Below, piece after piece: positions 1 through 56,181 of a DNA stretch of 64,000 nt (position 1 is its first letter; every line of letters begins with the position of its first letter). The notes under the pieces were generated by a model. That model was not told where the DNA came from, did no database searches, and saw only the letters and a list, made by a program, of their open reading frames with translations. The stretch comes from Malus domestica (lineage: Eukaryota > Streptophyta > Magnoliopsida > Rosales > Rosaceae): NCBI RefSeq assembly GCF_042453785.1, contig NC_091671.1, positions 33,991,001 through 34,055,000 of the forward strand. Direction: 5' to 3'. The position numbers and the translations under genes were made by a program.

Positions 1-1580
1 TCAAACTTCCAAGTAAGCAACCCAGGATCAGAAGTTTGACTTCGGCTTCCGGTTGATTGTTCTCATTCTCCTTGTCTCTCATTCAACTGCCAGGATAAGG
101 AGAAGCAAATGGATAAGAGATGATATGAGATACTTTTGCTTTTGAAGAAGTAACTTTCCACAGGCTTATTCTTGAACTGTGCTGGAGGGTTTTCTGGTGC
201 CCTTCAGAGTATAAGGCCGACTCAAAAATTTGAGGGTCAAAACAAGTCCATCAAATCTAGAGTACGTTCGACCTTGATGATATGGGATACTTTTGCTGTT
301 GACGGAATAATGAATGTGGTATGGAAAGGTGTCATGCTGTAGTGATCTGTTTCAGCTCACCGTTGAACCTTCTGCTTCAATCTTTTGCATGGCAGAAGTG
401 GTGTGCAACCTTTGCATTTAAATGGTCCTTCAGAACATTCCTTCATAGTGACTCATCCACGCTTGGCAGCTTCAGTGTAAAGAGCCAATATCTGATCAAC
501 TGTCATGAGGTATTTGCCGGTGGAATTCGTGACCTTGACAGCAGTTGAGGATGAGTACTCGAGAGCAATGCTAAGTAAGCAACCAGGCAAAGGCTCCAGG
601 CAGTCAGTTCCAAATTGGAGGTTTGATTTCAGGTTCCGACTGACTGCTCTCTTTCTCCTTGTCCTGCAGGTGTGGACAAGGACAAAGACAAAGATAGGGA
701 GAAAGCATGATATGGGATACTCTTGCTTTCGACCCTGATGATATGAGATACTCTTGTTCTTGGTGTGGCTTATTTGCTGAGGTATTATCGGGGGGAAATA
801 AAGCTGAGTATTTCGAGAGGTTATGTTGAGGGTGCCTTTTCGAATGCGAGAAAGGGTTGAGCATTTTTGCAGGTTTGCCTGTCCGTTGAGGAGGGAGGTC
901 AATGTATATAGGGATTTCCCAATAACAAGTAGTAATGCTATTCCTTTACCCTTCTTGGTCACAGCAATGTAGTGGGAGCTGCCAGCTTCACGTGTTTTAA
1001 TTTTGTCAGAGCACTTTGAAAAAGTGGTATGTGGTATCTGGAAAGCTGATGTTACGTGTGAAGATTACAGACAAGCTTTATCTAAGGAAATCTGGCTCTC
1101 GAAGTTCTGAGAGTTGTGCCTCTTCGGTTTTCGAACAAGCAATCCCGTCGAGGATCTGACTCTCGAGATTCGGAAAGCGGTGCTACTCCGGTTTTTTAGA
1201 AAGTAATTATGTTGGGAGTCTTTTCTCGAATGTGAGTAAAGGTTGGACGTTCTTGCCAACCTGTCTTGCCGCAAAACCCGGAGGTCGACATACATAGGGA
1301 CTTTCCAGTTGTCAAGCAGTGGTGCTGTTCCTTTACCCTTATGGGTAATAGTAGGGTAGCTGGAACTTCGAAATTCTCGTGCCTAAACTTTGTCAGAGAT
1401 CTTTGACAAAGTTATATGTGGTACCCGAGGAGTTGATGGTGCATATGGAGAGCGGTGATTGAACAGTAAGATTCACGTGCTTTCTACTTCACCAGAAATC
1501 TTCGACAGATTGCCCGTAATTTCCGCAAAGCTGAGTGTGCATGTGACAGGTGCTGACGAGGCTGAAAAAGCAGGTGCTTC

Positions 1581-1720
1581 TTCGATTTCTGAGATCGGCC
1601 CTCGTGGTCTCTGAGCAGCCCAGCTTTTGAGAAAGCAAACGCCTCTTCGATTTCTGAGATCGGCCCTCGTGGTCTCTGAGCAGCCCAGCTTTTGAGAAAG
1701 CAAACGCCTCTTCGATTTCT
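1581..1720. repeat. 65-bp direct repeat in Tat non-coding region
   Basis: A unit beginning ttcgatttctgagatcgg recurs at 1581, 1646 and (partial) 1711, a 65-bp period. The related fragment at 40441-40672 carries more units of about 64-65 bp, so the repeat number varies between copies of the element. Confidence 0.85.
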
Positions 1721-1855
1721 GAAGCTCCGTCGAGTGCAGATTTTTATAGAGGCTGGCATTAAGTTCCACAGCACACTTGAATCTCTACCAGTAGAAGCTC
1801 ATTTCTTGCACTTCTAAGATCTTGATTTGTCTGACCTCTTCCTTCTTCAACACAT

Positions 1856-2536
1856 TTGAAAATGTCTGGACCCTCCGACCGTCGTTTTGACTTGAACCTT
1901 GGAGAAGAGACAGCCACGCCTTCTCCAAACAACATATGGCGCCCATCCTTCATATCCCCTACTGGTCCTCTTACCGTTGGGGATTCTGTGATGAAGAATG
2001 ATATGACCGCTGCAGTGGTGGCCAGGAACCTTCTCACTCCCAAAGATAATAGACTACTTTCCAAACGGTCTGATGAGTTGGCTGTTAAGGACTCTCTGGC
2101 TCTTAGTGTTCAGTGTGCAGGTTCTGTGTCTAATATGGCCCAACGCCTATTTGCTAGAACCCGCCAAGTTGAATCATTGGCTGCTGAAGTGATGAGTCTC
2201 AAACAGGAGATTAGAGGGCTCAAGCATGAGAATAAGCAGTTGCACCGGCTCGCCCATGACTATGCTACAAACATGAAGAGGAAGCTTGACCAGATGAAGG
2301 AATCTGATGGTAAGGTTTTACTTGATCATCAGCGGTTTGTGGGTTTGTTCCAAAGGCATTTATTGCCTTCGTCCTCTAGGGTTGTACCTGGTAATGAAGC
2401 TTCAAATGATGAACCTCCAATGCCTCCTCCTTCTGGGGTTTTGTCAAGTACTGAGGCTCCGGATAACCACCCTCCGGTGCTTTCTCTTTCTGGGGCTCTA
2501 CCGACTGCTGAGACTTCCCCTAAGCAACCTTTGTGA
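1856..2536 (+). CDS. Antisense ORF (aORF) of Tat-like element, uncharacterised 226-aa protein
   Basis: This ORF of 226 codons runs opposite to gag/pol. I do not know its function. The N-terminus (starting MKMSGPSDRR) carries FDLNL at about residues 11-15, which resembles plant EAR repression motifs (LxLxL/DLNxx). A conserved segment about IWRPSF and NDMTAAVVARNLLTPK follows. Residues about 100-150 are rich in heptad-like L/E/K/Q and should form a coiled coil. The last 55 residues are a Pro/Ser-rich tail. The minus-strand copy at 40306-39626 has the same length, with about 17 amino-acid differences by eye and no indels. An upstream ATG context with a pyrimidine-rich leader (ctctagtctgacctcttcc-like, around 1830) is visible, but no sure TATA box. 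It could encode an accessory nuclear protein of the element. The frame is certain; expression is not shown. Confidence 0.75.
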   Translation: MKMSGPSDRRFDLNLGEETATPSPNNIWRPSFISPTGPLTVGDSVMKNDMTAAVVARNLLTPKDNRLLSKRSDELAVKDSLALSVQCAGSVSNMAQRLFARTRQVESLAAEVMSLKQEIRGLKHENKQLHRLAHDYATNMKRKLDQMKESDGKVLLDHQRFVGLFQRHLLPSSSRVVPGNEASNDEPPMPPPSGVLSSTEAPDNHPPVLSLSGALPTAETSPKQPL

Positions 2537-3149
2537 AGGCTCCCTTTTGTTTGTTTATTTTGACTCATGTATATGTACATATTTGTGGCTTATCGAAAAT
2601 ATTAATAAATAAGCTTTGCTTCATTTCAACATATTGTGTTAAATACACCAAAGCCTTCTTCATAAAGTTCTTTGAATTTTTGCTTTTGTTGAAACCTGTA
2701 TTGTTGAAGCTTTGTGAGTGAAGCATGTAGTTTGAGGTAGTGTTCCCTTAATTTCCCGAGTGAGGAAACTTCTCGGTTGGAGACTTGAAAAATCCAAGTC
2801 ACTGAGTGGTTGTGAGACTGCCGAGTATCAAGGTGCAGTAGCATATGGTGGGAGTCCCCCAAGTCTTCAGGCGAAGAGAGTTGCCGAATGAGGTGTCTCG
2901 CGTGTTACTAATTTGTCAAAGTAACGAATCCTTGTTTCGATGTCACACATTCGTATATGCTTTATCTAAAAATATTTCCAACTTTTGTGTGTTTGATGCT
3001 GCATGCTATTGACTAGACAAGATCAAGTGCAATTAGTAGCTTTTCTCTCTTTTTCATCTTTTCTTTGGTGGAATTGCTTTTCGTTTCCACTAATCAGCCT
3101 GAGTGGATGCAAGATAACACCATTCTCTATAGCTCAGATTGCAAAGTCG
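2537..3149. other. Non-coding Tat sequence between aORF and 181-bp array
   Basis: No coding potential is seen. Bases 2537-2803 are the 3' flank of the aORF and match 39360-39625 in reverse; the similarity stops at about 2803. The rest is unassigned element sequence. Confidence 0.5.
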
Positions 3150-4130
3150 TCTTCATGAAAGTTTTTCCTTATCTTGTGAACTACAACATATCCAAATTTG
3201 AGATCCATCGGAGTAGTACAACTTCAGAAATTCAAGTATGATGAGTAACTGTTCATCAATGTTCTGTTAATCCGTCAGACTTGTTGTGAGCTTCGAAACT
3301 CCATTTTCTCTTGTTCATATCAACATACTTTCTTCATCGAAGTTGTTCCTTAACTTGTGAACTACAACATATCCAAATTTGAGGTCCCTCGGAGCAGTAT
3401 AACTCCAGAAATCCAGGTATGATGAGTGACTGTTTATCATTTGTCTGTCAACCCGTCAGATTTGTTGTGAGCTTTGAAACTCTATTTTCTCTTGCTCAGA
3501 TCAGCATGCTTTCTTCATTGAAGTTGTTCCTCAGCTTGTGAACTACAACATATCCAAATTTGAGATCCCTCGGAGCAGTATGACTCCAGAAATCCAGGTA
3601 TGATGAATGACTGGTTATTATTTTTCTGTCAACCCGTCAGATTTGTTGTGAGCTTCGAAACTCCATTTTCTCTTGTTCAGATCGGTATGCTTTCTTCATT
3701 GAAGTTGTTCCTCAGCTCGTGAAATACAACATATCCAAATTTGAGATCCCTCGGAGCAGTATAACTCCAGAAATCCAGGTATGATGAATGACTGGTTATT
3801 ATTTTTCTGTCAACCCGTCAGATTTGTTGTGAGCTTCGAAACTCCATTTTCTCTTGTTCAGATCGGTATGCTTTCTTCATTGAAGTTGTTCCTCATCGAC
3901 TCTTTCATAACATATCAAAAATTCAGGATGAACTAACGGTTAAATATTTCCAGATCTTCGAAACATCACAACAGCTTCGAAATCTGCAAGAAGCCGACTA
4001 TCATGTTTGGAGCTTCAACACTTTAATTTCCGTCGCTCAAACAGAAATGGTTCCTTCTTGAAAGTTGTTCATATGCTCAAGAACTATAGGGTGTCCAAAA
4101 TTCAGCTCCATTGGAGAAGAGCAGAGGTTG
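3150..4130. repeat. 181-bp tandem array inside Tat element
   Basis: The marker tacaacatatccaaatttga recurs near 3182, 3363, 3544 and 3724, giving a period of about 181 bp. Each unit also holds ccgtcagatttgttgtgagc, ctccattttctcttgttcag and ttcttcattgaagttgttcc. Degenerate units follow to about 4130. Units 2-4 are very similar; the outer ones are diverged. Tandem repeats in this position of Tat/Ogre-type elements are known seeds of satellites, and 181 bp is in the usual plant satellite range. Confidence 0.9.
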
Positions 4131-4469
4131 CAGAAATTTGATAGATGAAAGGAGGCGGAAGAGGGAGAGAGAGAAAAAGTCTCTTGGGTTGGATTTCTAT
4201 TTTGGGGCAGATTCCAATTTTTGTAGCACCTTCATTATTGATGAATTGCTTGTACTTTTGTCCATTATGAAACTTGGGACTTTGGCTTGTTGTTGGATCT
4301 ATTATAATATGTTTGGGAACATATATAAGTGAATAAATAAGAAGGAAATTTTTGGGCCCTTGTGGGTGTAAAACAAAAAATGTTTATGTTTACCCAAGTG
4401 TTTTTGTACAAGTTCAAGGGCATCTTGGGTTTTGTGAACAAAATTTGTTTATTTGGAGCAAGGTTTTGT

Positions 4470-4870
4470 GTTGAAGCTTTGTAGGTGAAGCTTTGGTGTT
4501 GAAGCTTTCTAGGTGAAGCTTTGATGGTGAAGCTTTGTGGGTGAAGCTTTTTAGGTGAAGCTTTGTGGGTGAAGCTTTGGAGGTGAAGCTTTTCGGGTGA
4601 AGCTTGTTGGGTGAAGCTTTTTAGGTGAAGCTTTGTGGGTGAAGCTTTTTAGGTGAAGCTTTGTGGGTGAAGCTTTGGAGGTGAAGCTTTTCGGGTGAAG
4701 CTTTTTGGGTGAAGCTTTGTGGGTGAAGCTTTTTAGGTGAAGCTTTGTGGGTGAAGCTTTGGAGGTGAAGCTTTTCGGGTGAAGCTTTTTGGGTGAAGCT
4801 TTTTAGGTGAAGCTTTGTGGGTGAAGCTTTGGAGGTGAAGCTTTTCGGGTGAAGTTTTTTGGATGAAGCT
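4470..4870. repeat. 14-bp minisatellite with higher-order order, next to poly-T
   Basis: About 28 units of gtgaagcttt plus four variable bases (tgtgg, ggag, tcgg, ttgg, ttag classes). The variants recur in a near-fixed order (ttag, tgtgg, ggag, tcgg, ttgg), so there is a higher-order repeat of roughly 56-70 bp. Each unit has a HindIII site (aagctt). A 27-base T tract follows at 4872-4898, which is poly-A on the element's coding strand. Confidence 0.95.
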
Positions 4871-5110
4871 GTTTTTTTTTTTTTTTTTTTTTTTTTTTGG
4901 CGCTTGACACGGTCTTCATTTGCTTGTTTTGTAGTGACTGTGGAAGACGGATTGCTTTCTGATTGAGAAGGGTTCTGGCATCGCTTGCTATGAATGTAAA
5001 AGAGTGAGGGTTGAGTTGGCTAAATTACCTCTTTATTGAATTCATTGCCAAATGGCCTTCATTACATAGGATGCCGAACGGCTATAGCTCAACACTTGTA
5101 CATCGTGAGT

Positions 5111-6210
5111 CTATTTGTAGTAGTACTTCAAGTGATCAGCGTTCCATGGATGGCCAAGGGTCTTGCCATCAGAGCTTCTAAGTGTGTAAGAGCCAGGGCG
5201 ACTGATGCCAATGACTTCATACGGTCCATCCCAGTTTGGACTAAGTGTGCCTTCACTCGGGACTCTGTCGCAGAGTAATCTTTTCTTTAAGACCCAGTCT
5301 CCTATTTTGAAAGAACGAGGCTTGACCCTAGAGTCATAATAGTTGGAGATGCGCTGCTTGTAGGCGACATTCCTCAAGTGAGCTTGGTTTCTGTGTTCCT
5401 CGACTAAATCCAAGTTGAGGGTGAGTTGTTTGTCATTTTCACTTTGAATGTAGTTCTGGACTCGGAATGTTGCTTGCTCGAGCTCAACAGGGACAACCGC
5501 CTCTGTGCCAAAGGCAAGTGAGAATGGAGTTTCTCCTGTTGAAGTCCGATATGAAGTGCGATATGACCAAAGAACTTGGGGTACAAATTCTGGCCAACAG
5601 CCTTTAGCTTTGTCCAAGCTGGTTTTCAAAGTGCGCTTGATTATTTTGTTGATGGCCTCAACTTGTCATTAGACTGGGGATGAGCTGGAGAGGCAAAGCA
5701 TAAGTTGATGTTGAACTTAGAGCAGAACAACCTGAACTTCTTGTTGTCAAACTGTCGCCCATTGTCAGTGACTATCGCATTGGGAATGCCGAATCTACAA
5801 AGGATGTTCTTCCACACGAAGTCTTCTATCTTTGCCTCAGTAATGGTTGCCAAGGGTTCTACTTCGGCCCACTTTGTGAAGTAGTCCACTGCAACGACTG
5901 CGTAACAGACTTTGCCCTTCCCTGCCGGCATTGGGCTGATCAAATCAAGTCCCCACTGGGCGAAGGGCCAAGGGCTGATCATAGGAGTAAGAGGCTCTGG
6001 AGGGGAATGAGGAATAGTTGCATATCGTTGACATTTGTCACATGAGCGGGATACTTTGATGGCATCCTGGTGGAGTATTGGCCAGTAATATCCTTGGCGA
6101 AAAGTCTTGTGTGCTAGGGACCGAGATCCAGCATGATCTCCACAGACTCCCTCATGTATTTCCCGAAGGACGATTTCCGCCTCGGCAGGCGTAAGACACC
6201 TTAAGTATGG
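5111..6210 (-). pseudogene. Pol remnant: zinc-binding and integrase of Tat-like element
   Basis: On the minus strand, from about 6200, come an H2C2-like zinc-binding segment (ending SCDKCQRYA) and the integrase core. GLDLISP carries the first Asp and VTDNGRQF the second. AHPQSN leads into a frameshift near 5680, apparently one missing base, just before the catalytic Glu region. The other frame (5629-5111) continues with integrase C-terminal sequence including WSYRTSYRTSTGETPF, the typical gypsy FGTEAVVPVE region and a closing chromatin-proximal part (WDGPYEVI, HPWNADHLK). No protease, RT or RNase H motif lies upstream. The protein is broken and the element would need help in trans. Confidence 0.85.
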
Positions 6211-6214
6211 CAGG

Positions 6215-7909
6215 CTAAAACCTCGCTATTGTGGTGATACCCTTGACGCGGGTTTGACCCACTGCATTGACTGCCTGGGGACGAGCGCTATTGTGGCGAT
6301 ACCCTTGGTTATCGGGATAGTGTCCCTTACTCTTTTTACTGAAATGAGAGTGGTGAGGATGGAAATCCTTCCTCTTGCCTTGAAATTGATATGTCTGTTG
6401 ATTCGGTGAAGCATTATGCAAGGCATGGGGAGGTGCCACTGCTGTTTGGAAAGTCGAGGTCTTCTCATTTAGGTGAGTCTGGCTTCCACCTCCCACTTGT
6501 TGATAAAGGATGGTTGTAGGGGGTTTCTCCTGATATGTCTTTGCCTCGGCGGAGGCATGGTTATAAGCCTGCGCCATCACCTCAGAGTAAGTCTTCCAAG
6601 TATTGGCATTGATCATGTATTTAAAGAAACAATCACGTAGGCCTGCCGTGAAGGCTTTGAGGGCAGTCTTGTCGTCTGCCTCGGCACACCGGGAGTATTC
6701 ATGGCTGAAGCGGCCAACATACATACGTAATGACTCGTCTGGCTTCTGGCGGATAGTGTACAAGTCATCTGCAGAGTGCAAGCGATCGGTTTGGAAAATG
6801 TGTTGGGAAACAAATAGTTTCCTCAATTCCTCAAATGAGTCTACCGTCTCAGGTGTAAGACGACAATACCAATTTAGAGCTCCACTAAAGAGGGTAGAGG
6901 GGAAGAGAAGACATCGCTCTTCGTCGGTGTGCATCCGGTATGCCATGGTGGACTCAAAGAGGTTAAGGTGCTCAATCGGGTCCTCTTTTCCAGTATAAAG
7001 TTGCAAGCCAAGCTTTTGCTTTGTCTTTGCTTGAAGGGGGGTGTTGAGGATCCTCCTTGTAAGAGGGCCAGGCCTGGGTTGGTTCCAGTCAGGTATTTCA
7101 GCCTGACGTTCAGCCTTCAACTTGTTTACTTCCTCAAGAAGTTGTAGGACAAGGGGGTCCTGAGCGGAGTTATGTGCCACTGGAGCTTTCCTTCGTAAAT
7201 CTCCATCTCCTCTTGGAATTAGGAAGGTTTGATCAAGGGCATGTGATTTTTCCCTGGACTCGCTGTACTGGCTTCCAGGGTATGTCTGTCGGAACACCTC
7301 TGAGTCCCCTGTACCCTCATGTCTCTCTAGGACTTGTTGCCCCTTCCCCAAATTGGTGGCCGGCTCGGGCCGTGGCAGGGGACCGAGTCTCTCAGAAATC
7401 CTTGGGTCATTGATCTTTGAGCTTATATGGATGGAATTCTCTCGACGTTGCTTTAGGAAATCCCGACAATCGCGAAAGACGGCTTTCGATCCTTCTGCCC
7501 CTTCAGCAAAGAGGTGTCTCCCTCCACTTCTCATGGTTCGGGTCGAAGCAACTGGGTTAAGAGAAGCCTCATGTTGATTATCAAGTCGAGGGGTAATCTG
7601 TTCCCTATCAGGGATATCTATGTCGAATGCATGTGACCCTCCATGTTGGAGGGCACCCAGTTGATGGTTGACTTCCACGGGGGCAACAAGCTCGCGTGTC
7701 TGAGCTTGCCTAGCTTCGTGGAGTGTCTCGAAGAGCTTCTCATATTGCTCCTGGAGGACCTCATTCCTCATTGCTATCTTGTTGTTCTGAGCTTCCAACT
7801 CATCGACTTTAGCTTGAAGAAGAACTCGTTTTCCTTCCTTCTTTCGTTGTTTCGCACTATGTGCAAGGGGGGTGTCATTCTGTGTGCTGTGGCTTCCTTC
7901 GCTTCCCAT
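6215..7909 (-). CDS. Gag polyprotein of Tat-like Ty3/gypsy element
   Basis: The open frame extends to 8029, but the first 40 codons lie over the LTR/PBS junction. I take the Met at 7909 (MGSEGSHSTQ) as the start, giving about 564 residues. The N-terminal third is charged with a coiled-coil stretch (KVDELEAQNNKIAMRNEVLQ). The retrotransposon gag domain is about residues 320-450 (LFESTMAYRMHTDEERC, ALNWYCRLTPETVDSFEEL, LRMYVGRFSHEYSRC, ALKAFTAGLRDCFFKYM). The basic C-terminus (KRKDFHPHHSHFSKKSKG) has no clear CCHC knuckle. Gag forms the particle and packages the RNA. The frame is intact, and the stop precedes pol remnants directly, with protease and RT deleted. Confidence 0.85.
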   Translation of the reverse strand: MGSEGSHSTQNDTPLAHSAKQRKKEGKRVLLQAKVDELEAQNNKIAMRNEVLQEQYEKLFETLHEARQAQTRELVAPVEVNHQLGALQHGGSHAFDIDIPDREQITPRLDNQHEASLNPVASTRTMRSGGRHLFAEGAEGSKAVFRDCRDFLKQRRENSIHISSKINDPRISERLGPLPRPEPATNLGKGQQVLERHEGTGDSEVFRQTYPGSQYSESREKSHALDQTFLIPRGDGDLRRKAPVAHNSAQDPLVLQLLEEVNKLKAERQAEIPDWNQPRPGPLTRRILNTPLQAKTKQKLGLQLYTGKEDPIEHLNLFESTMAYRMHTDEERCLLFPSTLFSGALNWYCRLTPETVDSFEELRKLFVSQHIFQTDRLHSADDLYTIRQKPDESLRMYVGRFSHEYSRCAEADDKTALKAFTAGLRDCFFKYMINANTWKTYSEVMAQAYNHASAEAKTYQEKPPTTILYQQVGGGSQTHLNEKTSTFQTAVAPPHALHNASPNQQTYQFQGKRKDFHPHHSHFSKKSKGHYPDNQGYRHNSARPQAVNAVGQTRVKGITTIARF

Positions 7910-7996
7910 GCTGGAGAGGGATGCCTGATCAAAAGAAAGTGTACGAATGATAGAAACCAGCTTGACACAGCTGAAGAGAGTAGGAATAAGTGTCGT

Positions 7997-8015
7997 TTCC
8001 CACAGACGGCGCCAA
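7997..8015 (-). other. Primer binding site (PBS)
   Basis: Read on the minus strand, ttggcgccgtctgtgggaa begins one or two bases inside the LTR end. The tggcgcc start is the usual form in plant Ty3/gypsy elements. It fixes the inner LTR border at 8017. Confidence 0.85.
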
Positions 8016-8016
8016 A

Positions 8017-8537
8017 TGTTGATGCACAAAATCAGCGAAGACTTTGGTACAACAGAAAGTCTCAGGTTTTGTGACCTTCGCTTGGTTGCTTGGTTGCTTC
8101 AGTCACTAGTGAGGATAAGTACGTAAATGAATAGAGACAGAGAAGCAAACACAGGATGTACGTGGTTCACCCAGATTGGCTACGTCCACGGAGTAGAGGA
8201 GTTCTTATTAGTAGTGAAGGGCTTACACAAGTACAAAGGATCAAGCTCTCAATTTAGTGAGTTCTTGTGAATGATTTAACACAAAATGGCATTAGGCCAT
8301 ATTGTGGGGGAATGACCCCTATTTATAGAAAAACTTGTAGCTTTGTCACATTGACATGTGTCATGTTATGATTGGTTCTTGATGTTGACACGTGTTGCGC
8401 TCTGATTGGCTTCTAATCTTGACACGTGTCGAGTAGTGATTGGCCTCCTGGTCGGAGGGGAACTCTTCTGGGTCCTTGACAGTATAGCGTTGGCCGGTGC
8501 TCGGTAGTTTCGGGATTGGTCAAGTATGGTACAAACA
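8017..8537 (-). repeat. 5' LTR of Tat-like element (521 bp)
   Basis: On the minus strand the LTR starts tgtttgtacc and ends gcatcaaca, followed at once by the PBS. A TATA motif (tataaat, plus 8321-8327) marks the promoter, and transcription would run into gag. The stretch around cgtggacgtagccaatctgg is shared with the partial LTR at 42803-43254. The matching second LTR is outside the window, so the TSD cannot be tested. Confidence 0.88.
8351..8445 (-). promoter_or_regulatory. Three 34-bp repeats with G-box/E-box and CCAAT box in LTR U3
   Basis: ttgaca(c/t)gtgt...gattgg recurs at 8351, 8385 and 8419, exactly 34 bp apart. Each unit has a CATGTG or CACGTG core and an inverted CCAAT box (gattgg). 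They lie just upstream of the LTR TATA box, the place of an enhancer. Response to bZIP/bHLH and NF-Y factors is inference. Confidence 0.7.
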
Positions 8538-9722
8538 GACCATATGACGTGGTTTTTTATAATTAGATTATTACTTAAGTATTAATTAACGTGCTTATTT
8601 CATGTTATTTTTTATTTAAGATGTGCAGTCCAACCTGTCAACTTATCAATTCAAAACACACTGGTCTGCTACTGGTAGGGCAACTACTCATTTCTTGAGT
8701 CTCAAAATAATCAGGCCGCTGATAATTAATCAGCAGCTAATTCCACCTGGCATGTATAGAAACTACCTAAGACTAATTAGAGTTAATTTATTTATTTATT
8801 TGTTAAAATGACTAATTAAAGATAAAGACGGTTGCAGGTAACGGTCTAGTCAGCATAACCTCCAACATCCAACCCTATTTTTATCATTAAAATATAATTA
8901 CTTAGCAAGTCGCATTCTTCTGGATGGTCAATGTCCAAAAGTAAAATCTCCATCGACTCCCTGAATCTTCATCAACTTCAATTTTTCCCTTGCTTAGTTA
9001 TAACCAATGAAAACCCTAATCAGCTTTTGCTTACTTACCTGCCAAATATTTTTCTTTGGTCAAGAAAATGAGGTTTCGTTTTCACTGGTTTAGTCGTAGT
9101 TTCTAGTTGATTCTTCTAAATTCATAGCTAGGAACCAGGAAGGTTCCTTTGTTGTTGCTGGCCGTTGCCAAACACCAATAGCAAGGCTGCACAGATTTTT
9201 GACCTAAATGTGAATTTATTGGTGCATGTGATGTAGCTATGAACGTAAGGAGGTACGTGGATCATATTTTGTTCTAATCCAATTTAATGATCCAGTTCAT
9301 AACAGATAATTCAGTTCAAGAAAAGCGACCTCCTAAACATTTGAGTGTGAAACTCTTTTCTCGTAAATTACAATAATTTAAAAATAAAACATTGTCTTGT
9401 TAATGTGGATGGAGTATTTTTCATCCTTAAAAAATAAATTTAGAGATTTGTATAGACTATATTCAAGATCTTTAATCAAATACACAAAAAGTGATTGTGA
9501 CAAGACCAATTAAAACTGAGCTAATATATTGACAAAAAAAAAAAAAAAAAAAGAGCTAAGAAACTGATTTTATAAGGTTACCAAAAAATAAGTGGTTTAC
9601 TTTTTACACAAAGAATTTTAGATCTTATAAGCTTAAACACTTTAAGCTCGTTCTAATTTACCTTCTTGCCGCATCAATCACACTTCACACGTGGCAAGAA
9701 AACTCATTTCTAATCTCGGATC
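8538..9722. other. Intergenic, AT-rich, no gene seen
   Basis: No ORF with recognisable similarity and no clear repeat borders; an 18-20 base A tract lies at 9533-9552. It may contain old unassigned repeats. Confidence 0.5.
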
Positions 9723-30375: not shown

Positions 30376-31130
30376 AAAAGGTTCAGTGTAATTCTGGCAT
30401 TTAATTCCGTTATTCCCCTAGTTTAAGAATCTTAAGTGCATACAGATTCATAGTTAGACTGAGCAACTAAGGGTAGCCTTCTGTTTCTGTTGTCCACTTT
30501 AGCCTCATTGTCATACATTCTAGGCTGTAATATTTCCTGTCGTTTGTTCTCCTCAGCGGTTTAGCCATTTTTGCAGATGCATAGAAAAGGATGTATTTTG
30601 TTGACTGATTTCGTAGCAAATTGATTGATCATGAATCTAGAACGCTACTGTGCTTGGTTTTGCACTAAGTCTTCCCTGTTAGCTCCAATTACTTCATATC
30701 TAGTCTCTTTCAAAGTCTTCCTAGGTGTTCTTCTACCCCTTTTGTCTTGAGCCTTCGTCTCATAGTCGCATATTCTAACCGGATCATTTGTAGGTCTTCG
30801 GTTCATGTGTCCAAACAATCTTAGCCGATCTCTCATCTTATCTTCAATTGCCACTCATACCCTCGTTCTTAATCCTATCATTTCTCATGTGCCCACACAT
30901 CTAACGAACATTCTTATCTCCGCTACCCTTATTTTTTGCATGTGTTGTTATGACCGTCCAACATTCCGTGCTATAAAACATTATTGACTTTATTACCGTC
31001 CTATAGAACTTTCCCTTGAGTTTTAGTGAAATGTGATGAACCATCCTATAGAACTTTCCCTTGAGTTTTAGTGGAATGCGACGAATGCAGAACGCATAAC
31101 ATGCCTGATGCACTCTTTCACTTCATTCAT
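30376..31130 (-). mobile_element. SCI1 3' UTR, then decayed RTE LINE 3' end (30640-31130)
   Basis: 30376 to about 30600 is the probable 3' UTR. On the minus strand, frames at 31113-30901 and 30854-30645 hold RTE C-terminal words (LKLKGKFYR, FYSTECWTV, LRLFGHMNRRP, RRTPRKTLKETR). These align to the end of the LINE at 38895-39300. Stops and a local 48-bp duplication (about 31000-31080) show it is old. It is an independent, more diverged insertion than the LINE at 36 kb. Confidence 0.85.
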
Positions 31131-32270
31131 CTAGCTTGTATTTTGTGGCTGAGATAATAAAATTACAATTTTGATCTCCTATATGGCTAGGGCTGTAAAA
31201 GACTCGGATCCAAACTTGGTGCAAGTTCGAGCTGTTTCAAGCCGATTTACAGCCTTATATGTAACATACTTGGAATTTGAGGAGTCGACAGATGAGCATG
31301 AATTTGAAAGATAATTTAACTTCAAATTTTCATTTTTTTAAGTTTAAATTATCTCCGCTAAACATGCTTCTGAAGCTCTTGGATATTCCAACGCTTCTCT
31401 GAGCCTCATCTCTGGTGTTGCTTCTTCTTGGACATGAATCGTAATTTTATGCGTGCAGAAAAATGAGCTCCAAACGCGTAAGGAAAGCAAACTTTCAAAA
31501 CTAACGAACATCGTTAGTTACTAAATATTGCATAAAAGGGGCCTCACGCCCTCACAGGGCGAGCATTGGCGTAACGGAAATGTTGTTCTTTTATGATCGA
31601 AAGATCACGAGTTCAAGTTGTAGACACCTACATTAAATCAAATAGGTTTAGGCTCATACACGCTGTTTAGTACGGAAAGGTTGCACATTAGTAGCCGAAA
31701 GGTCACTGATTTGAGGTTTAGGCTCTTACATTAAATCAAATGGTAAATAGAACGTAATTATGACTAAGTTTTGGTAATTTGGACCTCATATTTAGGCAAC
31801 TCAATCGTCTAAATTCATGGTCTAAAATTTTTATTCACAGGAGCTGGCAAGAGACTATTTTCATAATTCAATTAACTCATACAAATACGAATAATATACA
31901 GTTAACAAAAACTCGAAAGCACGACTTGGGCGGTTTACCTCGAAATAAATCTCTAAGTTCACCATAATCTGCTGAAGGTTTTCCGATACGAATCTTCACA
32001 TGATCAAGAACTTCAAATTCGCAGCGATTTTATACTTGGCCAAGAAACCATTGCAGAGCTCGAGGTTTTTATGGTTCGGGCAAATCAACCACAAAGCTAT
32101 AATCGATATCGCCATTAAAATTAAAGACAAAATAAAGGGTAAAGTGGATAGTACAATGATTGACTTTTTAATGTAAAAATGTGGTTTTTCGTTAAAGTGA
32201 ACAGTACTGGAAGCTTTTCATTAAAGTTCCCTTAAAATTTTGCACCAGACATTCAATCTCTAACTCTTGA
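31131..32270. other. Intergenic with SINE-like and MITE remnants
   Basis: 31559-31640 has tRNA-promoter-like words (tggcgtaacgg, then cgagttcaagt), suggesting a SINE remnant. 32114-32233 is a partial copy of the 154-bp MITE family (see 50348 and 62320): aaataaagggtaaagtg, aaaatgtggtttttcgttaa, ttaaagttccc. No gene seen. Confidence 0.5.
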
Positions 32271-35661: not shown

Positions 35662-36097
35662 GGTAAGCATCATCCTCTTCCTTCTTTTGTTATGATTGAT
35701 TGTATAGAGAATTGAGAAAAAGGTTGAAGACAATTATGCGTTTTTGAGTTAGAGCATTTAGTAAATATATAATGACATCGATTAGTTCACTTAAGAGTTG
35801 AATCCTTTGTTGGTTTATTTGTACTGTGTGCTTGAGAATGAAAGCAATGGACACATTGTTGAATTGATGTTCCTTTTAATATCCATATAGATAAGGAATT
35901 GTTCCGTTTATTAGCAATTATATGAAGTAGGCATATTATGCAATACAAGTTCTACATTCATTTAGTAAATATTGAGTTTATTTTTATCGAATAGTGATAT
36001 TTGATTCAAGTTTAAGCATCTTAGATGTTTGTATTTTGAAAATTGATTTCAATGGTCTTTTATGATTTTTTTTCTTTTTTCTTTTTTGCTTACATAA

Positions 36098-39000
36098 CTC
36101 CGCCGTGTAAGTTTATCTTACATTGCCGGTCCCAAGCCCGGATAAAGGAGGAAGGGGAGGGCGTCAGGTAGTCGACAGCCGGCACTCCATGATCACGTCG
36201 AATCCTTATGAAAATGAATCCAGAACGAAATCGCGCTAAAGCTAGGGCGTCACCCGTAAGTGGCGCGCTGTGTGGCCTGAGCACAGTGATAAGTGAGCAA
36301 GGGTCGCTGTATCTCCATCGGCACCCGGATGCAGTGTTAAATGAGCAAGGGGGCTATAGAAACTTCTTTTCGAACGACTCCACTCAAAGTTGTTTGGGAG
36401 CATATGCTCCTATCAACTTTACACGGGACACACAAAAGAAGTACTTTGATCATATTAGACGGGGAAGGGTGAAGAAGCTAGGACAGAAGGGTAGAGTTCA
36501 AGAGAGCAAAATGCGTTTAGGAACGTGGAATATAGGAACCTTGACGGGAAAATCTATGGAAGTAGTAGAAGTTATGGTGAGGAGAAGGATAAATATTATG
36601 TGCCTACAAGAAACTAAGTGGGTTGGTCGTAAGGCAAAGGATCTAGAAAACTCAGGGTTTAAACTATGGTATTCGGGCACAAATAAAACGAGAAACGGTG
36701 TTGGCATCATCGTGGACAAGACCTTGACACAAGATGTTGTAGATGTCAAGAGGGTAGAAGATAGAATCATGGCAATCAAGATTGTAATAGGACAAGAACT
36801 TATCAATGTGATTAGTGCGTACGCACCTCAAGTAGGGTTGGATACGAGTTCGAAGGAGAAATTTTGGGAAGACCTTGGAGACTTGGTGCAAGGAATTGCT
36901 CAGACGGAGAAGTTATTTATAGGAGGAGATTTAAATGGACACGTGGGCAGGGAGACAGGCAACTATGGAGGTTTTCATGGTGGCCATGGTTTTGGGGAGA
37001 GAAACGAGGATGGGGAAGCTATCTTGGATTTTGCAATGGCATATGATCTCTTCTTAGCCAACACCTTCTTTAAGAAGAGAGAAGAACATGTGATCACCTA
37101 CAAGAGTGGGTCGTCAAAAACACAAATAGATTTTCTTCTAATGAGGAAAGGGGATCGTATAACTTGTAAGGATTGCAAAGTTATACCAGGAGAGAGCGTG
37201 GCTAATCAACATCGCTTGTTGGTGATGGATGTACATATCAAAAGAGTGAGAAAAAAGAACAAGACTTGGAAGTGCCCAAGGACTAGATGGTGGAATCTAA
37301 AAGAAGAAAAACAAGCAATTTTCAAAGAGAAAGTAATCACCCAGTGTGTGTGGGATAGAGAGGGGGAAGCTAACCAAATGTGGGATTCCATGGCTAGTTG
37401 TATCCGAAAAGTAGCAAAAGAGGTATTAGGAGAGTCCAAGGGCTTTGCCCCACATCAAAAGGAATCTTGGTGGTGGAATGAGGAGGTACAAACAAAGGTG
37501 AAGGCTAAGAAGGAATGTTGTAAAGCCTTATACAAGGATAGGACCGATGAAAATGGTGAAAGGTATAGAAAAGCGAAGCAAGAGGCGAAGAAAGCTGTGA
37601 GAGAAGCTAAGTTAGCGGCTTATAACGATATGTATAAGCGACTAGATACCAAAGAAGGAGAGTTGGATATCTATAAACTAGCTAGAGCAAGGGAAAAAAG
37701 ACAAGGGACCTAAACCAAGTGAGGTGCATCAAGGATGAGGATGGAAATGTTCTTGCTACAGAGAACGCGGTTAAAGACAGATGGAAAGGTTATTTTCATA
37801 ATCTTTTCAATGAAAGACATGAAAGGAGTGCTTCTTTAGGGGAGTTGAGTAACTCAGAAGAGTGTAGAAACTACTCTTTTTATCGTAGAATCCGGAAGGA
37901 AGAAGTGGTTGTAGCTTTGAAGAAGATGAAGCATAGAAAAGCAGTAGGCCCAGACGATATACCAATCGAAGTGTGGAAAGTTTTGGGAGAGACAGGTATA
38001 ACATGGCTCACTGACCTTTTCAATAGGATTTTGAAAACGAAGAAGATGCCAAATGAGTGGCGAATGAGCACTTTGGTGCCTATCTACAAGAATAAGGGCG
38101 ATGTACAAAATTGCATGAACTATAGGGGTATTAAGCTAATGAGTCATACAATGAAGCTTTGGGAGAGAGTCATTGAGCATAGATTGAGGCAAGAGACACG
38201 GGTTTCGGACAACCAATTCGGGTTCATGCCAGGGCGCTCAACCATGGAGGCAATCTATATCTTACGAAGATTGATGGAAAGATATAGAGATGGGAAAAAG
38301 GATTTACACATGGTCTTTATAGATTTGGAAAAAGCGTATGATAGGGTCCCAAGAGACATTCTTTGGAGGATTTTAGAGAAGAAAGGAGTACGAGTAGCAT
38401 ATATCCAAGCTATACAGGATATGTATGAAGGAGCAAAGACTGCCGTAAGAACTCATGAAGGACAAACCGAAAGCTTTCCCATAACTGTAGGATTACATCA
38501 AGGCTCATCCTTAAGTCCTTACCTTTTTGCGTTGGTAATGGATGAGTTAACAGGACATATTCAAGATGATATTCCTTGGTGTATGCTTTTCGCAGACGAT
38601 ATAGTGTTGATAGATGAAACTCAGGAAGGGGTAAATGCAAAGCTTAACCTTTGGAGAGAAGTGTTGGAATCTAAAGGTCTTCGCCTAAGCCGATCAAAGA
38701 CAGAATATATGGAGTGCAAGTTCAGTGCAAATGGAGGCCAAAACGAGTTAGGGGTGAGGATCGGAGATCAAGAAATACCAAAGAGCGACCGTTTTCGTTA
38801 CCTAGGATCTATCTTGCAAAAGAACGGAGAATTAGATGGAGATCTCAACCATAGAATACAAGCTGGATGGATGAAGTGAAAGAGTGCATCCGGCGTGTTG
38901 TGTGACCGCTGTATGCCACTGAAGCTCAAGGGAAAATTTTATAGGACGGCAATAAGGCCGGCGATGCTGTATGGCACAGAATGTTGGGCGGTGAAGCATC

Positions 39001-39362
39001 AACACGTACACAAAATGGGTGTAGCGGAGATGAGGATGCTTCGTTGGATGTGTGGGCACACGAGAAAGGATAAGATTAGGAATGAGGATATTCGGGGTAA
39101 AGTAGGAGTAGCCGAAATTGAAGGAAAGATGAGAGAAAATCGGTTACGGTGGTTTGGACATGTGCAAAGAAGGCCTACTGACGCTCCGATTAGAAGATGC
39201 GACTATAGGACAGAGGTTCAGGGCCGAAGAGGTAGAGGAAGACCTAGGAAAACACTGGAAGAGACCCTAAGAAAAGACTTAGAGTACTTGGATCTAACGG
39301 AGGACATGACACAGGATAGAACACAATGGCGTTCTAAGATTCATATAGCCGATCCCACTCAG
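36098..39362 (+). mobile_element. RTE-clade LINE, near full length, ORF broken
   Basis: The 5' region (gcccggataaaggaggaa near 36135) is typical of plant RTE elements. The ORF has an APE endonuclease (MRLGTWNIGTLTGKSMEV, IMCLQETKW, VISAYAPQ, GGDLNGHVG, KTQIDFLLM) and a reverse transcriptase ([46 protein letters not shown]). A frameshift near 37699, apparently one base lost in an A run, separates the endonuclease (36208-37713) from the RT (37719-38879). A TGA at 38877-38879 replaces a Cys codon that is intact in the second 3' end (43350). The frame then continues to 39365. The (TTG)n tail is missing here because the Tat fragment joins at cccactcagtg. Not autonomous now. Confidence 0.93.
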
Positions 39363-39625
39363 TGACTTGGATTTTCCAAGTCTCCAACCGAGAAGTTTTC
39401 CTCACTTGGGAAATTAAGGGAACACTACCTCAACCTACATGCTCCACTCACAAAGCTTCAACATACAAGCTTCAACAAAAGAAAATTCAAAGAACTTAGC
39501 GAAGAAGGCTTTGGTGTATTTAACACAATACGTTGAAATGAAGGAAATCTTATTTATTGATATCCCCGATAAGTTACAAATATGTACATATACTTGAGTC
39601 AAAATAAACAAACAAGAGGGAGCCT

Positions 39626-40306
39626 TCACAAAGGTTGCTTAGGAGAAGTCTCAGCAGTCGGTAGAGCCCCAGAAAGAGAAGGCACCGGAGGGGGATTATT
39701 CGGAGCCTCAGTACTGGACAAAACCCTAGAAGGAGGAGGCATCAGAGGTTGATCATTTGGAGCTTCATTACGCGGTACAGCCCTAGAAGACGAAGGCAAT
39801 AAATGCCTTTGGAACAAACCCACAAATCTCTGATGATCAAGTAAAACCTGACCATCAGATTCCTTCATCTGGTCAAGCTTCCTCTTCATGTTTGTAGCAT
39901 AGTCATGTGCGAGCCGGTGCAATTGTTTATTCTCATGCTTGAGCCCTCTAATCTCCTGTTTGAGACTCATCACTTCAGCCGCCAATGATTCAACTTGGCG
40001 GGTTCGAGCAAATAGGCGTTGGGCCATATTAGACACAGAACCTGCACACTGAACACTGAGAGCCAGAGAATCCTTAACAGCCAACTCATCAGACCGTTTG
40101 GAAAGTAGTTTGTTATCTTTGGGAGTGAGAAGGTTCCTGGCCACTACCGCAGCGGTCATATCATTCTTCATCACGGAATCCCCAACGGTAAGAGGACCAG
40201 TAGGGGAGACGAAGGATGGGCGCCATATGTTGTCTGGAGAATGCGGGGCTGCCTCTTCAACAAGGTTCAAGTCAAAACGACGGTCGGAGGGGCCAGACAT
40301 TTTCAA
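39626..40306 (-). CDS. Second copy of Tat antisense ORF (226 aa)
   Basis: Same length and start as the ORF at 1856-2536. FDLNL at 11-15, the coiled coil (RTRQVESLAAEVMSLKQEI) and the C-terminus TAETSPKQPL are all kept. Changes cluster at residues 16-33 and in the Pro/Ser-rich tail, while the middle is nearly identical. It remains open although its element is a fragment inside a LINE. Function unknown. Confidence 0.72.
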   Translation of the reverse strand: MKMSGPSDRRFDLNLVEEAAPHSPDNIWRPSFVSPTGPLTVGDSVMKNDMTAAVVARNLLTPKDNKLLSKRSDELAVKDSLALSVQCAGSVSNMAQRLFARTRQVESLAAEVMSLKQEIRGLKHENKQLHRLAHDYATNMKRKLDQMKESDGQVLLDHQRFVGLFQRHLLPSSSRAVPRNEAPNDQPLMPPPSRVLSSTEAPNNPPPVPSLSGALPTAETSPKQPL

Positions 40307-40440
40307 AGGTGTTGAAGAGAGAAGAGGTCGGACAAATCAAGATCTTAGAAGTGCAAGAATGGAGCTTCTACTGGTGGATATTCAAGTGTGCTTTGGAACT
40401 TAATGTCAGCCCTTATAAAAATCTGCACTCGACCAAGCTT

Positions 40441-40672
40441 CAGAAATCGAAGAGGCGCCTGCTCAGAAATCGAAGAGGCGTTTGCTTTCTCAAAAGCTGG
40501 GCTGCTCAGAGACCACGAGGGTCGATCTCAGAAATCGAAGAGGCGTTTGCTTTCTCAAAAGCTGGGCTGCTCAAAGACCACGAAGGCCGATATCAGAAAT
40601 CGAAGAGGCTTGCTTTCTCAAAAGCTGGGCTGCTAAGAGACCACGAAGGCCGATCTCAGAAATCGAAGAGGC
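40441..40672. repeat. Tandem 64-65-bp units upstream of the aORF copy
   Basis: cagaaatcgaagaggc recurs near 40441, 40464, 40529, 40593 and 40657. It is the same unit as at 1581-1720, in larger number. Confidence 0.85.
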
Positions 40673-41094
40673 ACCTACTTTTCCAGCCTTGTCAGCACCT
40701 GTCACACGCACACTCAGCTTTGCGGAAATTATGGGCATTCTGTCGAAGATTTCTGGCGAAGTAGAAAGCACATGAATCGTACTGTTCAATCACCCACTTC
40801 CCATACGCAACAGTAACTCATGGGTACCACAGATAACTTTGCCAAAGTTCTCTGACAAAGTTGAGACACATGAAGCTTGCAGCTCCCGCTACATCGCTCT
40901 GACCAAGAAGGGTAAAAGAATTGCAAAGAAACAACACTAACAAAGTTTAGACACATAAATTTTGAAGGTCTAGCTACCATATTATTAACCACAAGGGTAA
41001 AGGAACAGTACCACTGCTGGATAATTGGAAAGTCCCGGTGTGTCAACCTCTGTGCTTCGTGGCAAGGTAGACTAGCAAACATGCTAACCTTTAC

Positions 41095-41660
41095 TCACAT
41101 TTAAGAAAACACTCCCAACAGGATTGCTTGCTCCAAAATCGAAGAGGCACCGCCCTCCGAATCTCGAGAGCCAGACTCCCAACATGATTACTTTCTCAAA
41201 AATCGAAGAGAGGGTAAAGGAACAGTACCACTGCTGGATAATTGGAAAGTCCCTGTGTGTCAACCTTTGTGCTTCGTGGCAAGGTAGACTAGCAAACATG
41301 CCCAACCTTTACTCACATTCGAGAAAATACTCCCAACAAGATTGCTTGCTCCAAAATCGAAGAGGCACCGCCCTCCGAATCTCGAGAGCCAGACTCCCAA
41401 CATGATTACTTTCTTAAAAATCGAAGAGAGGGTAAAGGAACAGTACCACTGCTGGATAATTGGAAAGTCCCTGTGTGTCAACCTCTGTGCTTCGTGGCAA
41501 GGTAGACTAGCAAATATGCCCAACCTTTACTCACATTCGAGAAAACACTCCCAACAAGATTGCTTGCTCCAAAATCGAAGAGGCACCGCCCTCCGAATCT
41601 CGAGAGCCAGACTCCCAACATGATTACTTTCTCAAAAATCGAAGAGACACCGCTCTCCGA
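41095..41660. repeat. 218-bp tandem repeat in Tat fragment
   Basis: ctccaaaatcgaagaggcac starts at 41131, 41349 and 41567, an exact 218-bp period. Each unit holds ggtaaaggaacagtaccact and the cttcgtggcaaggtagacta word. The copy at 1-2803 has this region once only, so the array expanded in this lineage. Confidence 0.92.
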
Positions 41661-42802
41661 ATCTCGAGAGCCAGACCCCCAGCAGGATTGCTTTCTCAAA
41701 AATCGAAGAGGCATCGTTCTCCGAATCTCGAGAGCCAGATCCCCGACAGGATTGCTTGTTCGAAAACCGAAGAGGCACCACTTTCCCAACTTCAAGAGCT
41801 GGATCTCCTTGGATAAAGCTTGTCTGTAATCTTCACACGCAACATCAGCTTTCCAGATACCACAGACCACTTTTTCAAAGTGCTCTGACAGAGTTAAAAC
41901 ATGTGAAGCTGGCAGCTCCCACTACCGTGTTATGACCAAGCAGGGTAAAGGAATAGCATTATTACTTGATGTTAGGGAGACTCCTATATATGTCGACCTC
42001 CATCCCTAACGGACAGGCAGACCTGCAAAAATGCTCAACCCTTTCTCTTATCTGAGAGGGCACTCCCAACTAAGACTTTCGAAATATTCAGCTTTCTTTC
42101 CCCCCGATAATACCTCTGTAAACAAGCTATACTAGAGCAAGAATATCTCATATCATCAGGGTTAAAAGCAAGAGTATCCCATATCATGCTTTTTCTCTGT
42201 CTTTTCCTTTGGCCTTGTTCTTACCTGCAAGACAAGGAGAACGAGAGCAATCAGTCAGCACTTGGAATCAAGCTCCCAGCCAGGAACTGACTGCCTGGAA
42301 CCCCTTACCTGATTACTTACCTGGCATTGCTCTCGAGTACTCATCTTCAACATCTTATGTTTCCAGGGAAGATACCGCATCTGCCTGAGGAACAGATAGG
42401 GCAAGTGAGAAGGATACAAGGAAGCATGTGGAGACAAGCGTAACAGCACACGTGCCGATACATCCACTACTCTGTCAAAAGCAAAAGTATCCCATATCAG
42501 CAGGGTCGAACGTACTCTAGATTTGATGGACTTGTTTTGACCCTCAAATTCTTCAGTCGGCCTTATACTCTGGAGGAAACCAGAAAACCCTGCAACCCGG
42601 TTCAAGAATAAGCTTGTGGAAAGTTACTTCTTCAAAAGCAAAAGTATCCCATATCATCTCTTCTCATTTTTCTTCTCTTTATCCTTCATGCTGCTTGCAA
42701 GATAGGGAGAATGTGAACAATCAGCTGAAGCTCTGATTGCTTACCTTGTCTGTCACCTCTTTCAGCAGATCCCCTAGCCCGGCGACTTGGGGGACTCCTA
42801 CT

Positions 42803-43254
42803 ACATGGTTTGTATCGTGCTTGACCAAGCCTGAAACTACAAGTAAGCTTCAAGTGAAATTGATACATTACCTTGTGCATCTCCACCAGTTATAGATACC
42901 ACCCCTGGATGGAGGAAGAGTACTTCCAGAGAAAATGCCACATCTACCTATGAGACAGATAAGGCAAGTCAAGACGATACCACACTCCGGTACTTAGAAG
43001 TTTCGTGGTTACGAGATCATTCTCCCACAATATTTCCTAATGTCATTTGTACTAAATCATTCACTTGTACTCACTAAAGGAGAGCTTGAACCTATGTACT
43101 TGTGTAAACCCTTCACAATTAATTAGAACTCCTCTATTCCGTGGACGTAGCCAATCTGGGTGAACCACGTACATCTTGTGTTTGCTTTCCTAATTCCATC
43201 CATTTATATACTTATCCACACTAATGACCGGAGCAATCTAGCGAAGATCACAAA
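42803..43254 (+). repeat. Partial LTR of Tat fragment
   Basis: It starts tggtttgtatcgtgcttgac, matching the LTR start tgtttgtaccatacttgacc of 8537-8017. It shares ccgtggacgtagccaatctg and gggtgaaccacgtacatc, and stops at gcgaagatcacaaaa, about 55 bp before the LTR end. The U3 G-box repeats are not present, so it is internally diverged or deleted. Confidence 0.75.
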
Positions 43255-43257
43255 AAG

Positions 43258-43869
43258 TGACCGTTTTCGCTATCTAGGATCTATCTTGCAAGAGAACGGA
43301 GAATTAGATGGAGATCTCAACCATAGAATACAAGCTGGATGGATGAAATGTAAGAGTGCATCTGGCGTGTTGTGTGACCGTCGTAGGCCACTGAAGCTCA
43401 AGGGAAAATTTTATAGGACGGCAATGAGGCCAGCGATGTTGTATGGCACAGAATGTTGGGCGGTGAAGCATCAACACGTACACAAAATGGGTGTAGCGGA
43501 GATGAGGATGCTTCGTGGGATGTATGGGCACACGATAAAGGATAAGATTGGGAATGAGGATATCCGAGGTAAAGTAAGAGTAGCCAAAATTGAAGGAAAT
43601 ATGAGAGAAAATCGGTTCCGGTGGTTTGGACATGTGCAAATAAGGCCTACTGACGCTCCGGTTCGAAAATGTGACTACGGGACAGAGGTTCAGGGCCGAA
43701 GGGGTAGAGGAAGACCTAGGAAAACTTTGGAAAAGACCCTAAGAAAAGACTTGAGTACTTGGATCTAACGGAGGACATGACACAAAACCGAGCGCAATGA
43801 CGTTCTAGGATTCATATAGCCGACCCCACTTAGTGGGAAAAGGCTTTGTTGTTGTTGTTGTTGTCGTTG
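43258..43869 (+). mobile_element. RTE LINE 3' end with (TTG)n tail
   Basis: The C-terminal part of an RTE ORF (LKLKGKFYRTAMRPAMLYGT, RRGRGRPRKTLE) starts at gtgaccgttttcgctatcta (equal to 38783 in the first LINE). It ends gaccccacttagtgggaaaa, gg, cttt and (GTT)n. Stops occur near the end, but the Cys codon lost in the first LINE is present here. The 3' TSD follows directly. Confidence 0.9.
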
Positions 43870-43889
43870 TTTCTTTTTTGCTTACATAA

Positions 43890-56126: not shown

Positions 56127-56181
<55 letters not shown>

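What the first reader, a model, noticed from the sequence alone, without database searches (positions are those of the whole stretch)
36078..43889. LINE/LTR chimera with one target-site duplication around the whole 7.8 kb
A 20-bp perfect direct repeat abuts the 5' end of an RTE LINE and the (TTG)n tail of a second RTE 3' end. Between them is an inverted Tat LTR-element fragment with no proper ends. An ordinary nested LTR insertion would leave two LTRs and a short TSD, and would not duplicate 580 bp of LINE. Two routes are possible: (a) retrotransposition of a chimeric RNA or template switching by the LINE RT; (b) repair or gene conversion inside an older LINE that brought in a Tat-plus-LINE junction from elsewhere.
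Basis: partly seen in the sequence, partly recalled or inferred. Interest (0 to 1): 0.75.

Follow-up and report, generated by a model that had tools for sequence, protein, structure and literature searches.

The report
Hybrid jumping gene in many copies
The 7.8 kb oddity is one copy of a plant jumping gene (a LINE) that long ago fused with the tail of an unrelated LTR retrotransposon and has since copied itself, hybrid and all, to about two thousand places in this genome.

Summary
The sequence observation holds: an 18-20 bp perfect target-site duplication flanks LINE + Tat fragment + second LINE 3' end. The reading as one event at this locus does not. In the window's own genome (unnamed, 651 Mb, apple-like) junction 1 occurs at 2381 places and junction 2 at 2192 (controls 0). 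Of 20 other copies fetched, 8 hold the full 7.77 kb unit and 12 align only from a later start; 19 of 20 reach the same 3' end, and all 8 full-length copies have their own 14-19 bp duplication. So the composite is a chimeric LINE family that moves as a unit by target-primed reverse transcription.

Its history is partly preserved. 396 places keep an intact Tat 3' LTR end joined to LINE position 2410, so Tat first integrated normally into a LINE. A join at a 9-of-10 microhomology then attached a full LINE upstream; a later deletion made the window form. The LINE ORF shows purifying selection inside the composite lineage (2 old copies compared); the second LINE end decays as non-coding. LINE chimeras are known; an autonomous LINE-LTR composite family of this size appears to be a new variant.

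The parts
36078..36097 (+). left target-site duplication (18-20 bp; the last AA may be the element's first two bases)
   Evidence: exact match to 43870-43889; other full-length copies start AACTCCGCC
36098..39364 (+). complete RTE-like LINE (c1) up to the end of the microhomology; ORF broken in this copy by a frameshift near 37.7 kb and a stop at 38877-38879
   Evidence: eight other copies start at the same base
36520..36990 (+). apurinic-type endonuclease domain (PF03372)
   Evidence: E 2.5e-10
38097..38813 (+). reverse transcriptase domain (PF00078)
   Evidence: E 1.1e-36
39355..39364 (+). junction 1: microhomology CCACTCAGTG between the LINE 3' hairpin and Tat
   Evidence: 2381 genome places
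39365..43256 (+). Tat-type LTR retrotransposon fragment, sense strand on +: 3' third plus truncated 3' LTR
   Evidence: mostly 84-91% (tandem-repeat part 77-79%) to window 54-2809 and 84.6% to the LTR part, read on the minus strand
39626..40300 (-). Tat antisense ORF, open in this copy; no Pfam match
40994..41808 (+). tandem repeats (217-218 bp and 64 bp units) of the Tat non-coding region
42784..42805 (+). G-rich PPT-like tract before the 3' LTR
   Evidence: read from the sequence; PPT name recalled
42806..43256 (+). Tat 3' LTR lacking about its last 50 bp
   Evidence: an intact end is present in L032, L034, L038, L045
43250..43260 (+). junction 2: LTR ...CACAAA joined to LINE position about 2682, a derived deletion form
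   Evidence: 2192 genome places, intact form at 396
43257..43835 (+). second LINE 3' end (c2), now 3'UTR of the composite, decaying as non-coding sequence
43818..43845 (+). terminal RNA hairpin AGCC..CCCAC/GUGGG..GGCU, probable RT recognition end
   Evidence: fold -12.6 kcal/mol, no shuffle control; role inferred
43846..43869 (+). (TTG)n tail
   Evidence: same kind of tail in the 8 full-length copies
43870..43889 (+). right target-site duplication
1..8542 (-). ordinary Tat-type relative in the same window, used as reference: LTR 8017-8542, gag and integrase on the minus strand, other LTR off-window

Best explanation
The feature is one insertion of an autonomous composite retrotransposon family. 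SHOWN: the unit LINE(full) - Tat 3' part - LINE 3' end - (TTG)n is a repeat family with each junction at about 2200-2400 places; partial copies mostly lack only their 5' side; and full-length copies have their own target-site duplications, so it moves as a unit by target-primed reverse transcription. SHOWN: older members keep the exact Tat LTR terminus joined to LINE position 2410. INFERRED history: (1) a Tat element integrated normally into a LINE copy; (2) an RNA reading from Tat through its 3' LTR into the LINE 3' end was reverse-transcribed by the LINE machinery, which at Tat CCACTCAGTG jumped to the matching hairpin at the 3' end of a full-length LINE RNA and copied it to its start, giving a composite that still encodes the LINE protein; (3) a deletion across the LTR end and 272 bp of LINE gave the window form, which then amplified. 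The Tat part rides as a 3.9 kb 3'UTR insert; the terminal LINE hairpin and tail supply the RT start (inferred).
For: J1 at 2381 and J2 at 2192 places with reversed-pattern controls of 0. The unit recurs in other loci; the longest aligned piece of each of 20 is 96.3-98.5% identical. Own duplications of 14-19 bp in 8 of 8 full-length copies against a maximum of 7 in 56 cross-pairs; the old-form full-length copy L051/L032 has 14 bp. Intact LTR/LINE 2410 form at 396 places. Four old or intermediate loci followed upstream all have LINE 3267 joined to Tat, 2 at the original point and 2 with a 129 bp Tat deletion. RT pN/pS between standard copies and the two old copies that hold RT is 0.27 and 0.31 in frame, against 0.51-1.71 in its other frames and 0.36-1.36 in non-coding Tat (pooled 0.29), so the ORF was selected within the composite lineage. 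In this copy c2-derived changes are N16:S5 and c1-derived N3:S10, Fisher p 0.004 (8 unresolved substitutions and 1 indel dropped). Tat occurs without LINE at the J1 site at 1326 places, and LINE ends of no known composite form exist (L033, L049).
Against: The predicted left border of the nested Tat precursor was not found with two patterns (0 hits), so step 1 rests on the right border alone. Whether step 2 was an RNA template switch or a DNA deletion at the same microhomology cannot be told from sequence. Ten of 12 copies lacking the 5' side gave no convincing duplication, nor did 3 of 4 old or intermediate copies; one full-length duplication (L011) is simple-repeat sequence. At junction 1 some places read T, the LINE letter, instead of C (19 of the 100 rows listed, whose pattern favours T). 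No transcript or retrotransposition data. The 20 copies come from the 40 best junction-1 hits and so favour young copies.
Confidence: 0.8

Rival explanations
1. Same family, but junction 1 arose in DNA: a full-length LINE lay upstream of a LINE carrying a nested Tat, and a deletion between CCACTTAGTG in the LINE end and CCACTCAGTG in Tat (microhomology end joining) fused them; the fused locus was then transcribed and amplified.
For: The same 5-10 bp microhomology and the intact LTR border fit equally well.
Against: Needs two same-strand LINEs side by side. Tat has a predicted hairpin just 3' of the junction and the LINE partner site is a hairpin too, which suits RT pausing, though this is suggestive only.
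Confidence: 0.25
2. One reading: the chimera was made and inserted here in one event with two template switches.
For: One 18-20 bp duplication surrounds the whole unit; a precedent exists (PMC2104539).
Against: Both junctions are at about 2200-2400 places, and the whole unit sits elsewhere with other duplications.
Confidence: 0.01
3. One reading: gene conversion or repair placed a Tat-LINE junction inside an older LINE at this locus.
For: c2 looks older than c1 here.
Against: c2 is non-coding in the composite family (pN/pS 1.02 among 15 standard copies), which explains the asymmetry; the complete unit is found elsewhere in full length with exact ends.
Confidence: 0.02
4. The composite spreads as an LTR retrotransposon that captured LINE pieces.
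For: It contains most of one LTR and a PPT-like tract.
Against: No match to a 5' LTR or to the primer-site region of the reference in the unit; missing 5' sides, (TTG)n tails and 14-19 bp duplications. The 8 standard and 1 old full-length copies end in LINE sequence on both sides.
Confidence: 0.02

Closest known systems
Tripartite chimeric retroelement WEIRD-MgSINE-MGL in Magnaporthe (Gogvadze 2007, PMC2104539; abstract, passages and section 9 read)
   Same: Pieces of different RNAs fused around a LINE 3' end, one 14 bp direct repeat around all, explained by LINE template switching with predicted hairpins near switch sites.
   Different: There one tripartite locus (besides 33 bipartite elements) with a 5'-truncated LINE, and no microhomology found; here the LINE is complete, the partner is an LTR element, a microhomology is present, and the chimera is a family of about 2000 copies with a selected ORF.
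SVA/LAVA composite retrotransposons of hominoids (PMC7353768, search listing only)
   Same: Multi-copy composites mobilised by LINE machinery; SVA contains an LTR-derived part (passage in PMC13174262).
   Different: They are non-autonomous; this composite carries the LINE's own endonuclease-RT ORF.
L1 chimeras with diverse RNAs in mammals (PMC13174262; abstract, section 22 and passages read)
   Same: LINE RT joins other RNAs to LINE sequence; the authors speculate that such chimeras drive LINE-1 evolution through new 5' UTRs.
   Different: What I read concerns candidate chimeric insertions with adjacent sequence at individual loci; here 3.9 kb of LTR element lies downstream of the ORF and was inherited by a multiplying lineage.
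Template-switched LTR retrotransposon insertions in Triticeae (PMC1950507, search listing only)
   Same: Complex retrotransposon insertions in plants attributed to template switching.
   Different: By its title and listed abstract start it concerns LTR elements; no LINE part is mentioned there.

Membership tests
RTE-type LINE | single ORF with APE-like endonuclease followed by RT | tested here: met
   PF03372 and PF00078 in order; the ORF is interrupted in this copy
RTE-type LINE | clade placement by an RT tree | not tested
   RTE name is recalled from the (TTG)n tail and 3' end; no reference set used
RTE-type LINE | 5' truncation, repeat tail and target-site duplications (TPRT) | tested here: met
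   duplications in 8 of 8 full-length but only 2 of 12 other copies
Tat-type Ty3/gypsy LTR retrotransposon | LTRs, gag and integrase with primer-binding site and polypurine tract | tested here: inconclusive
   the insert alone fails (no 5' LTR, no gag-pol); the window relative has gag and rve and a GGCGCC primer-like site; Tat label recalled
Chimeric retroelement from LINE template switching | fused sense-strand pieces inside one target-site duplication | tested here: met
Chimeric retroelement from LINE template switching | the join was made at RNA level during reverse transcription | not testable with these tools
   a DNA deletion at the same microhomology gives the same product
SVA-like non-autonomous composite | no coding capacity for its own mobilisation | tested here: not met
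   the LINE ORF is present and was selected between standard and 2 old copies

The most novel reading that the evidence does not exclude
The composite is a LINE that gained a useful cargo: the Tat-derived antisense ORF (without an in-frame stop in 12 of 15 standard copies, the window's included, and in 2 of 4 old or intermediate ones) is expressed from the other strand and kept because it helps the composite, making this a two-gene LINE built by assembly with an LTR element.
Probability: 0.1. Interest if true: 0.85.

Novelty: new variant of a known kind. Interest (0 to 1): 0.6.

Why it matters
The LINE chimeras described in what I read are single insertions or non-autonomous passengers. Here a chimera kept its own enzyme, stayed under selection and became a large LINE lineage, with older and intermediate forms still in the genome. 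That makes the speculation that such joins drive LINE evolution testable step by step in a plant. It also warns annotators: such elements are easily split into LINE and LTR pieces. A published repeat table gives LINE/RTE-BovB 11.0 Mb in apple against 2.2 and 4.4 Mb in two pears (PMC3974708 section 21), which would fit an apple-side expansion if this genome is apple.

Tried and rejected
Single event at this locus: rejected. Insert boundaries as LTR TG...CA ends: rejected, because the reference Tat continues through the 39364 side. Dating the two LINE ends as two insertions: replaced by coding versus non-coding decay. Selection on the antisense ORF: singleton ratios within the family match other frames and non-coding Tat; against the four old or intermediate copies the in-frame ratios are 0.31-0.47, within the range of non-coding Tat, 0.36-1.36, except the lowest, so inconclusive. 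Nested precursor left border: two patterns, 0 hits. Viral contigs, queried with a 161 aa piece: 4 stretches matched, none a relative. The RT piece in bacterial genome contigs and in plasmids gave one and the same record, a plant-like LINE on what looks like a BAC; Tat in plasmids gave no match. Ten paper searches listed no description of this composite by title or abstract start; the library is open-licence PMC only, long lists were capped, and Repbase was not searched.

Weak points of my own counts: c1 and c2 picks in the 21-copy sets may mix the two ends in truncated copies (c2 ratio 0.75 there against 1.02 in the 15-copy set). In one search polarity rests on one distant outgroup, so synonymous polarity is noisy; with two outgroups one search gave 19 c2-derived, 13 c1-derived and 18 unresolved of 50 differences, uneven but not decisive. 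Shifted-frame ratios are not neutral yardsticks in a selected gene; non-coding Tat is the better one. The 20 loci are from the 40 best junction-1 hits.
Full report
Observation. The 20 bp direct repeat is real, exact and without another match of 16 or more bases in the window. It abuts the start of a complete LINE and the (TTG)n tail of a second LINE 3' end. The LINE has endonuclease and RT domains; in this copy its ORF is interrupted by a frameshift near 37.7 kb and a stop at 38877. The two 3' ends are 92% identical over about 585 bp.

What lies between. The window happens to hold a relative of the middle piece at 1-8542, with gag and integrase on its minus strand and an LTR at 8017-8542. Aligning it shows that the insert's plus strand is the Tat sense strand: reference 2809 down to 54, then an LTR matching 8315 down to about 8069. 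The left joint lies in CCACTCAGTG, which Tat contains and which matches the LINE end CCACTTAGTG at 9 of 10 bases. All 20 fetched standard copies and all 4 old or intermediate ones carry the Tat letter C, so at least CCACT is shared exactly; but T-bearing junctions exist (19 of the 100 rows listed, whose pattern asked for T), and their share was not counted. Random LINE-Tat joints reach 5 exact bases in 0.6%, and 10 bases with at most one mismatch in 0.03%, of 200,000 trials.

It is a family. When the genome search answered, a 200 base query across junction 1 gave 40 full-length hits, all that were scored, among 2047 candidates. Pattern counts with up to 3 mismatches gave 2381 for junction 1, 2192 for junction 2 and 3982 for the LINE 3' end, with reversed-pattern controls of 0. 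Of 20 loci fetched at 10 kb each, 8 hold the complete 7.77 kb unit; 12 align only from a later start, and one of these (L016) is also cut on the 3' side. All 8 full-length copies start at the same base and have perfect, different duplications of 14-19 bp (that of L011 is simple-repeat sequence), while 56 cross-pairings never exceed 7. Among the other 12 only 2 gave duplications (16 and 12 bp, with 6 and 10 bases to the start). Mean length in this biased sample is 6.5 kb, reckoned from the 5' starts alone, so the family may occupy of the order of 10-15 Mb (extrapolation).

History. Twenty LINE 3' ends taken from the rows listed split as follows: 8 window-form composites; 4 with an intact Tat LTR end joined to LINE position 2410 (L032, L034, L038, L045); L047 and L048 with an intermediate cut; 6 without visible Tat, of which L033 and L049 are LINE throughout the 1.3 kb fetched. 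The intact form occurs at 396 places. Four old or intermediate loci followed 7.6 kb upstream all have LINE 3267 joined to Tat: L052 and L054 at the original point, L051 and L053 with Tat 1-129 missing. A full-length old form (L051/L032) has a 14 bp duplication; the other three, which lack the 5' side, gave none. An exact LTR terminus joined to LINE is what integrase leaves in DNA, whereas the 3' end of an LTR-element RNA lies inside the LTR (established LTR biology). So Tat was first integrated in a LINE copy. The window's junction 2 is a later deletion of about 50 bp of LTR plus LINE 2410-2682.

Junction 1. The likeliest step is a template switch during reverse transcription of a Tat-LINE read-through RNA onto a full LINE RNA at its terminal hairpin (folds, without shuffles). 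The equivalent DNA deletion is a live rival. The predicted nested precursor was not found.

Selection. In this copy, polarised against one distant LINE, c1 changes are mostly synonymous (10:3) and c2 changes mostly not (5:16), p 0.004, with 8 unresolved substitutions and 1 indel set aside. Among standard copies pN/pS is 1.02 for c2 (15 copies) and 0.61 for RT (14 copies); the latter is not below non-coding Tat (0.54-0.68), as expected for recent dead copies. Between standard copies and the two old copies with RT it is 0.27 and 0.31, below all 12 non-coding Tat values (0.36-1.36). So the composites' LINE protein was used while they evolved as composites. Full-length copies are 97.9-99.3% identical in the RT region (36 pairs of 9 copies), against a c1-c2 synonymous difference of about 0.105 (0.090 in the larger, noisier set). 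Birth is therefore several times older than the recent burst. With a recalled rate of 1.3e-8 per site per year this is roughly 4 against 0.5 million years, and more with slower tree rates.

Comparison. A tripartite LINE chimera with one duplication is published (PMC2104539), as are L1 chimeras with many RNAs (PMC13174262) and non-autonomous composites with LTR parts (SVA; listing and one passage only). None of the ten paper searches listed an autonomous LINE-LTR composite family like this one. The species is inferred only: 651 Mb in 19 contigs fits apple (recalled), and the published excess of RTE in apple over pear (PMC3974708) would fit.

Noticed in passing
NZ_CP104070.1 (L001, L002): The 39.8 kb 'Alicyclobacillus fastidiosus plasmid unnamed3' carries a plant-like RTE LINE with catA1 and an IncFIA replicon; it looks like a plant BAC clone deposited as a bacterial plasmid.
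   Followed up: partly
window 15878-19532 vs 54368-58770 and 27289-28991 vs 62134-64000: Direct duplication in pieces, mostly about 93% identical, about 35-39 kb apart; a paralogous empty site might lie beyond the window end.
   Followed up: no
window 46966-47928 (-): UDP-glycosyltransferase gene piece just downstream of the composite (PF00201); a further ORF at 48616-49245 was not tested.
   Followed up: partly
window 1-8542: Tat-type relative with gag and integrase matches but no RT match in the ORFs tested, plus a conserved antisense ORF of unknown function.
   Followed up: partly
L051, L053; L032, L034, L045: A composite subfamily lacking Tat 1-129 right at junction 1; L032, L034 and L045 also share a LINE deletion of about 130 bp in the second 3' end.
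   Followed up: no
window 30631-31155 (-): Old LINE 3' fragment, about 72% identical, on the opposite strand.
   Followed up: no
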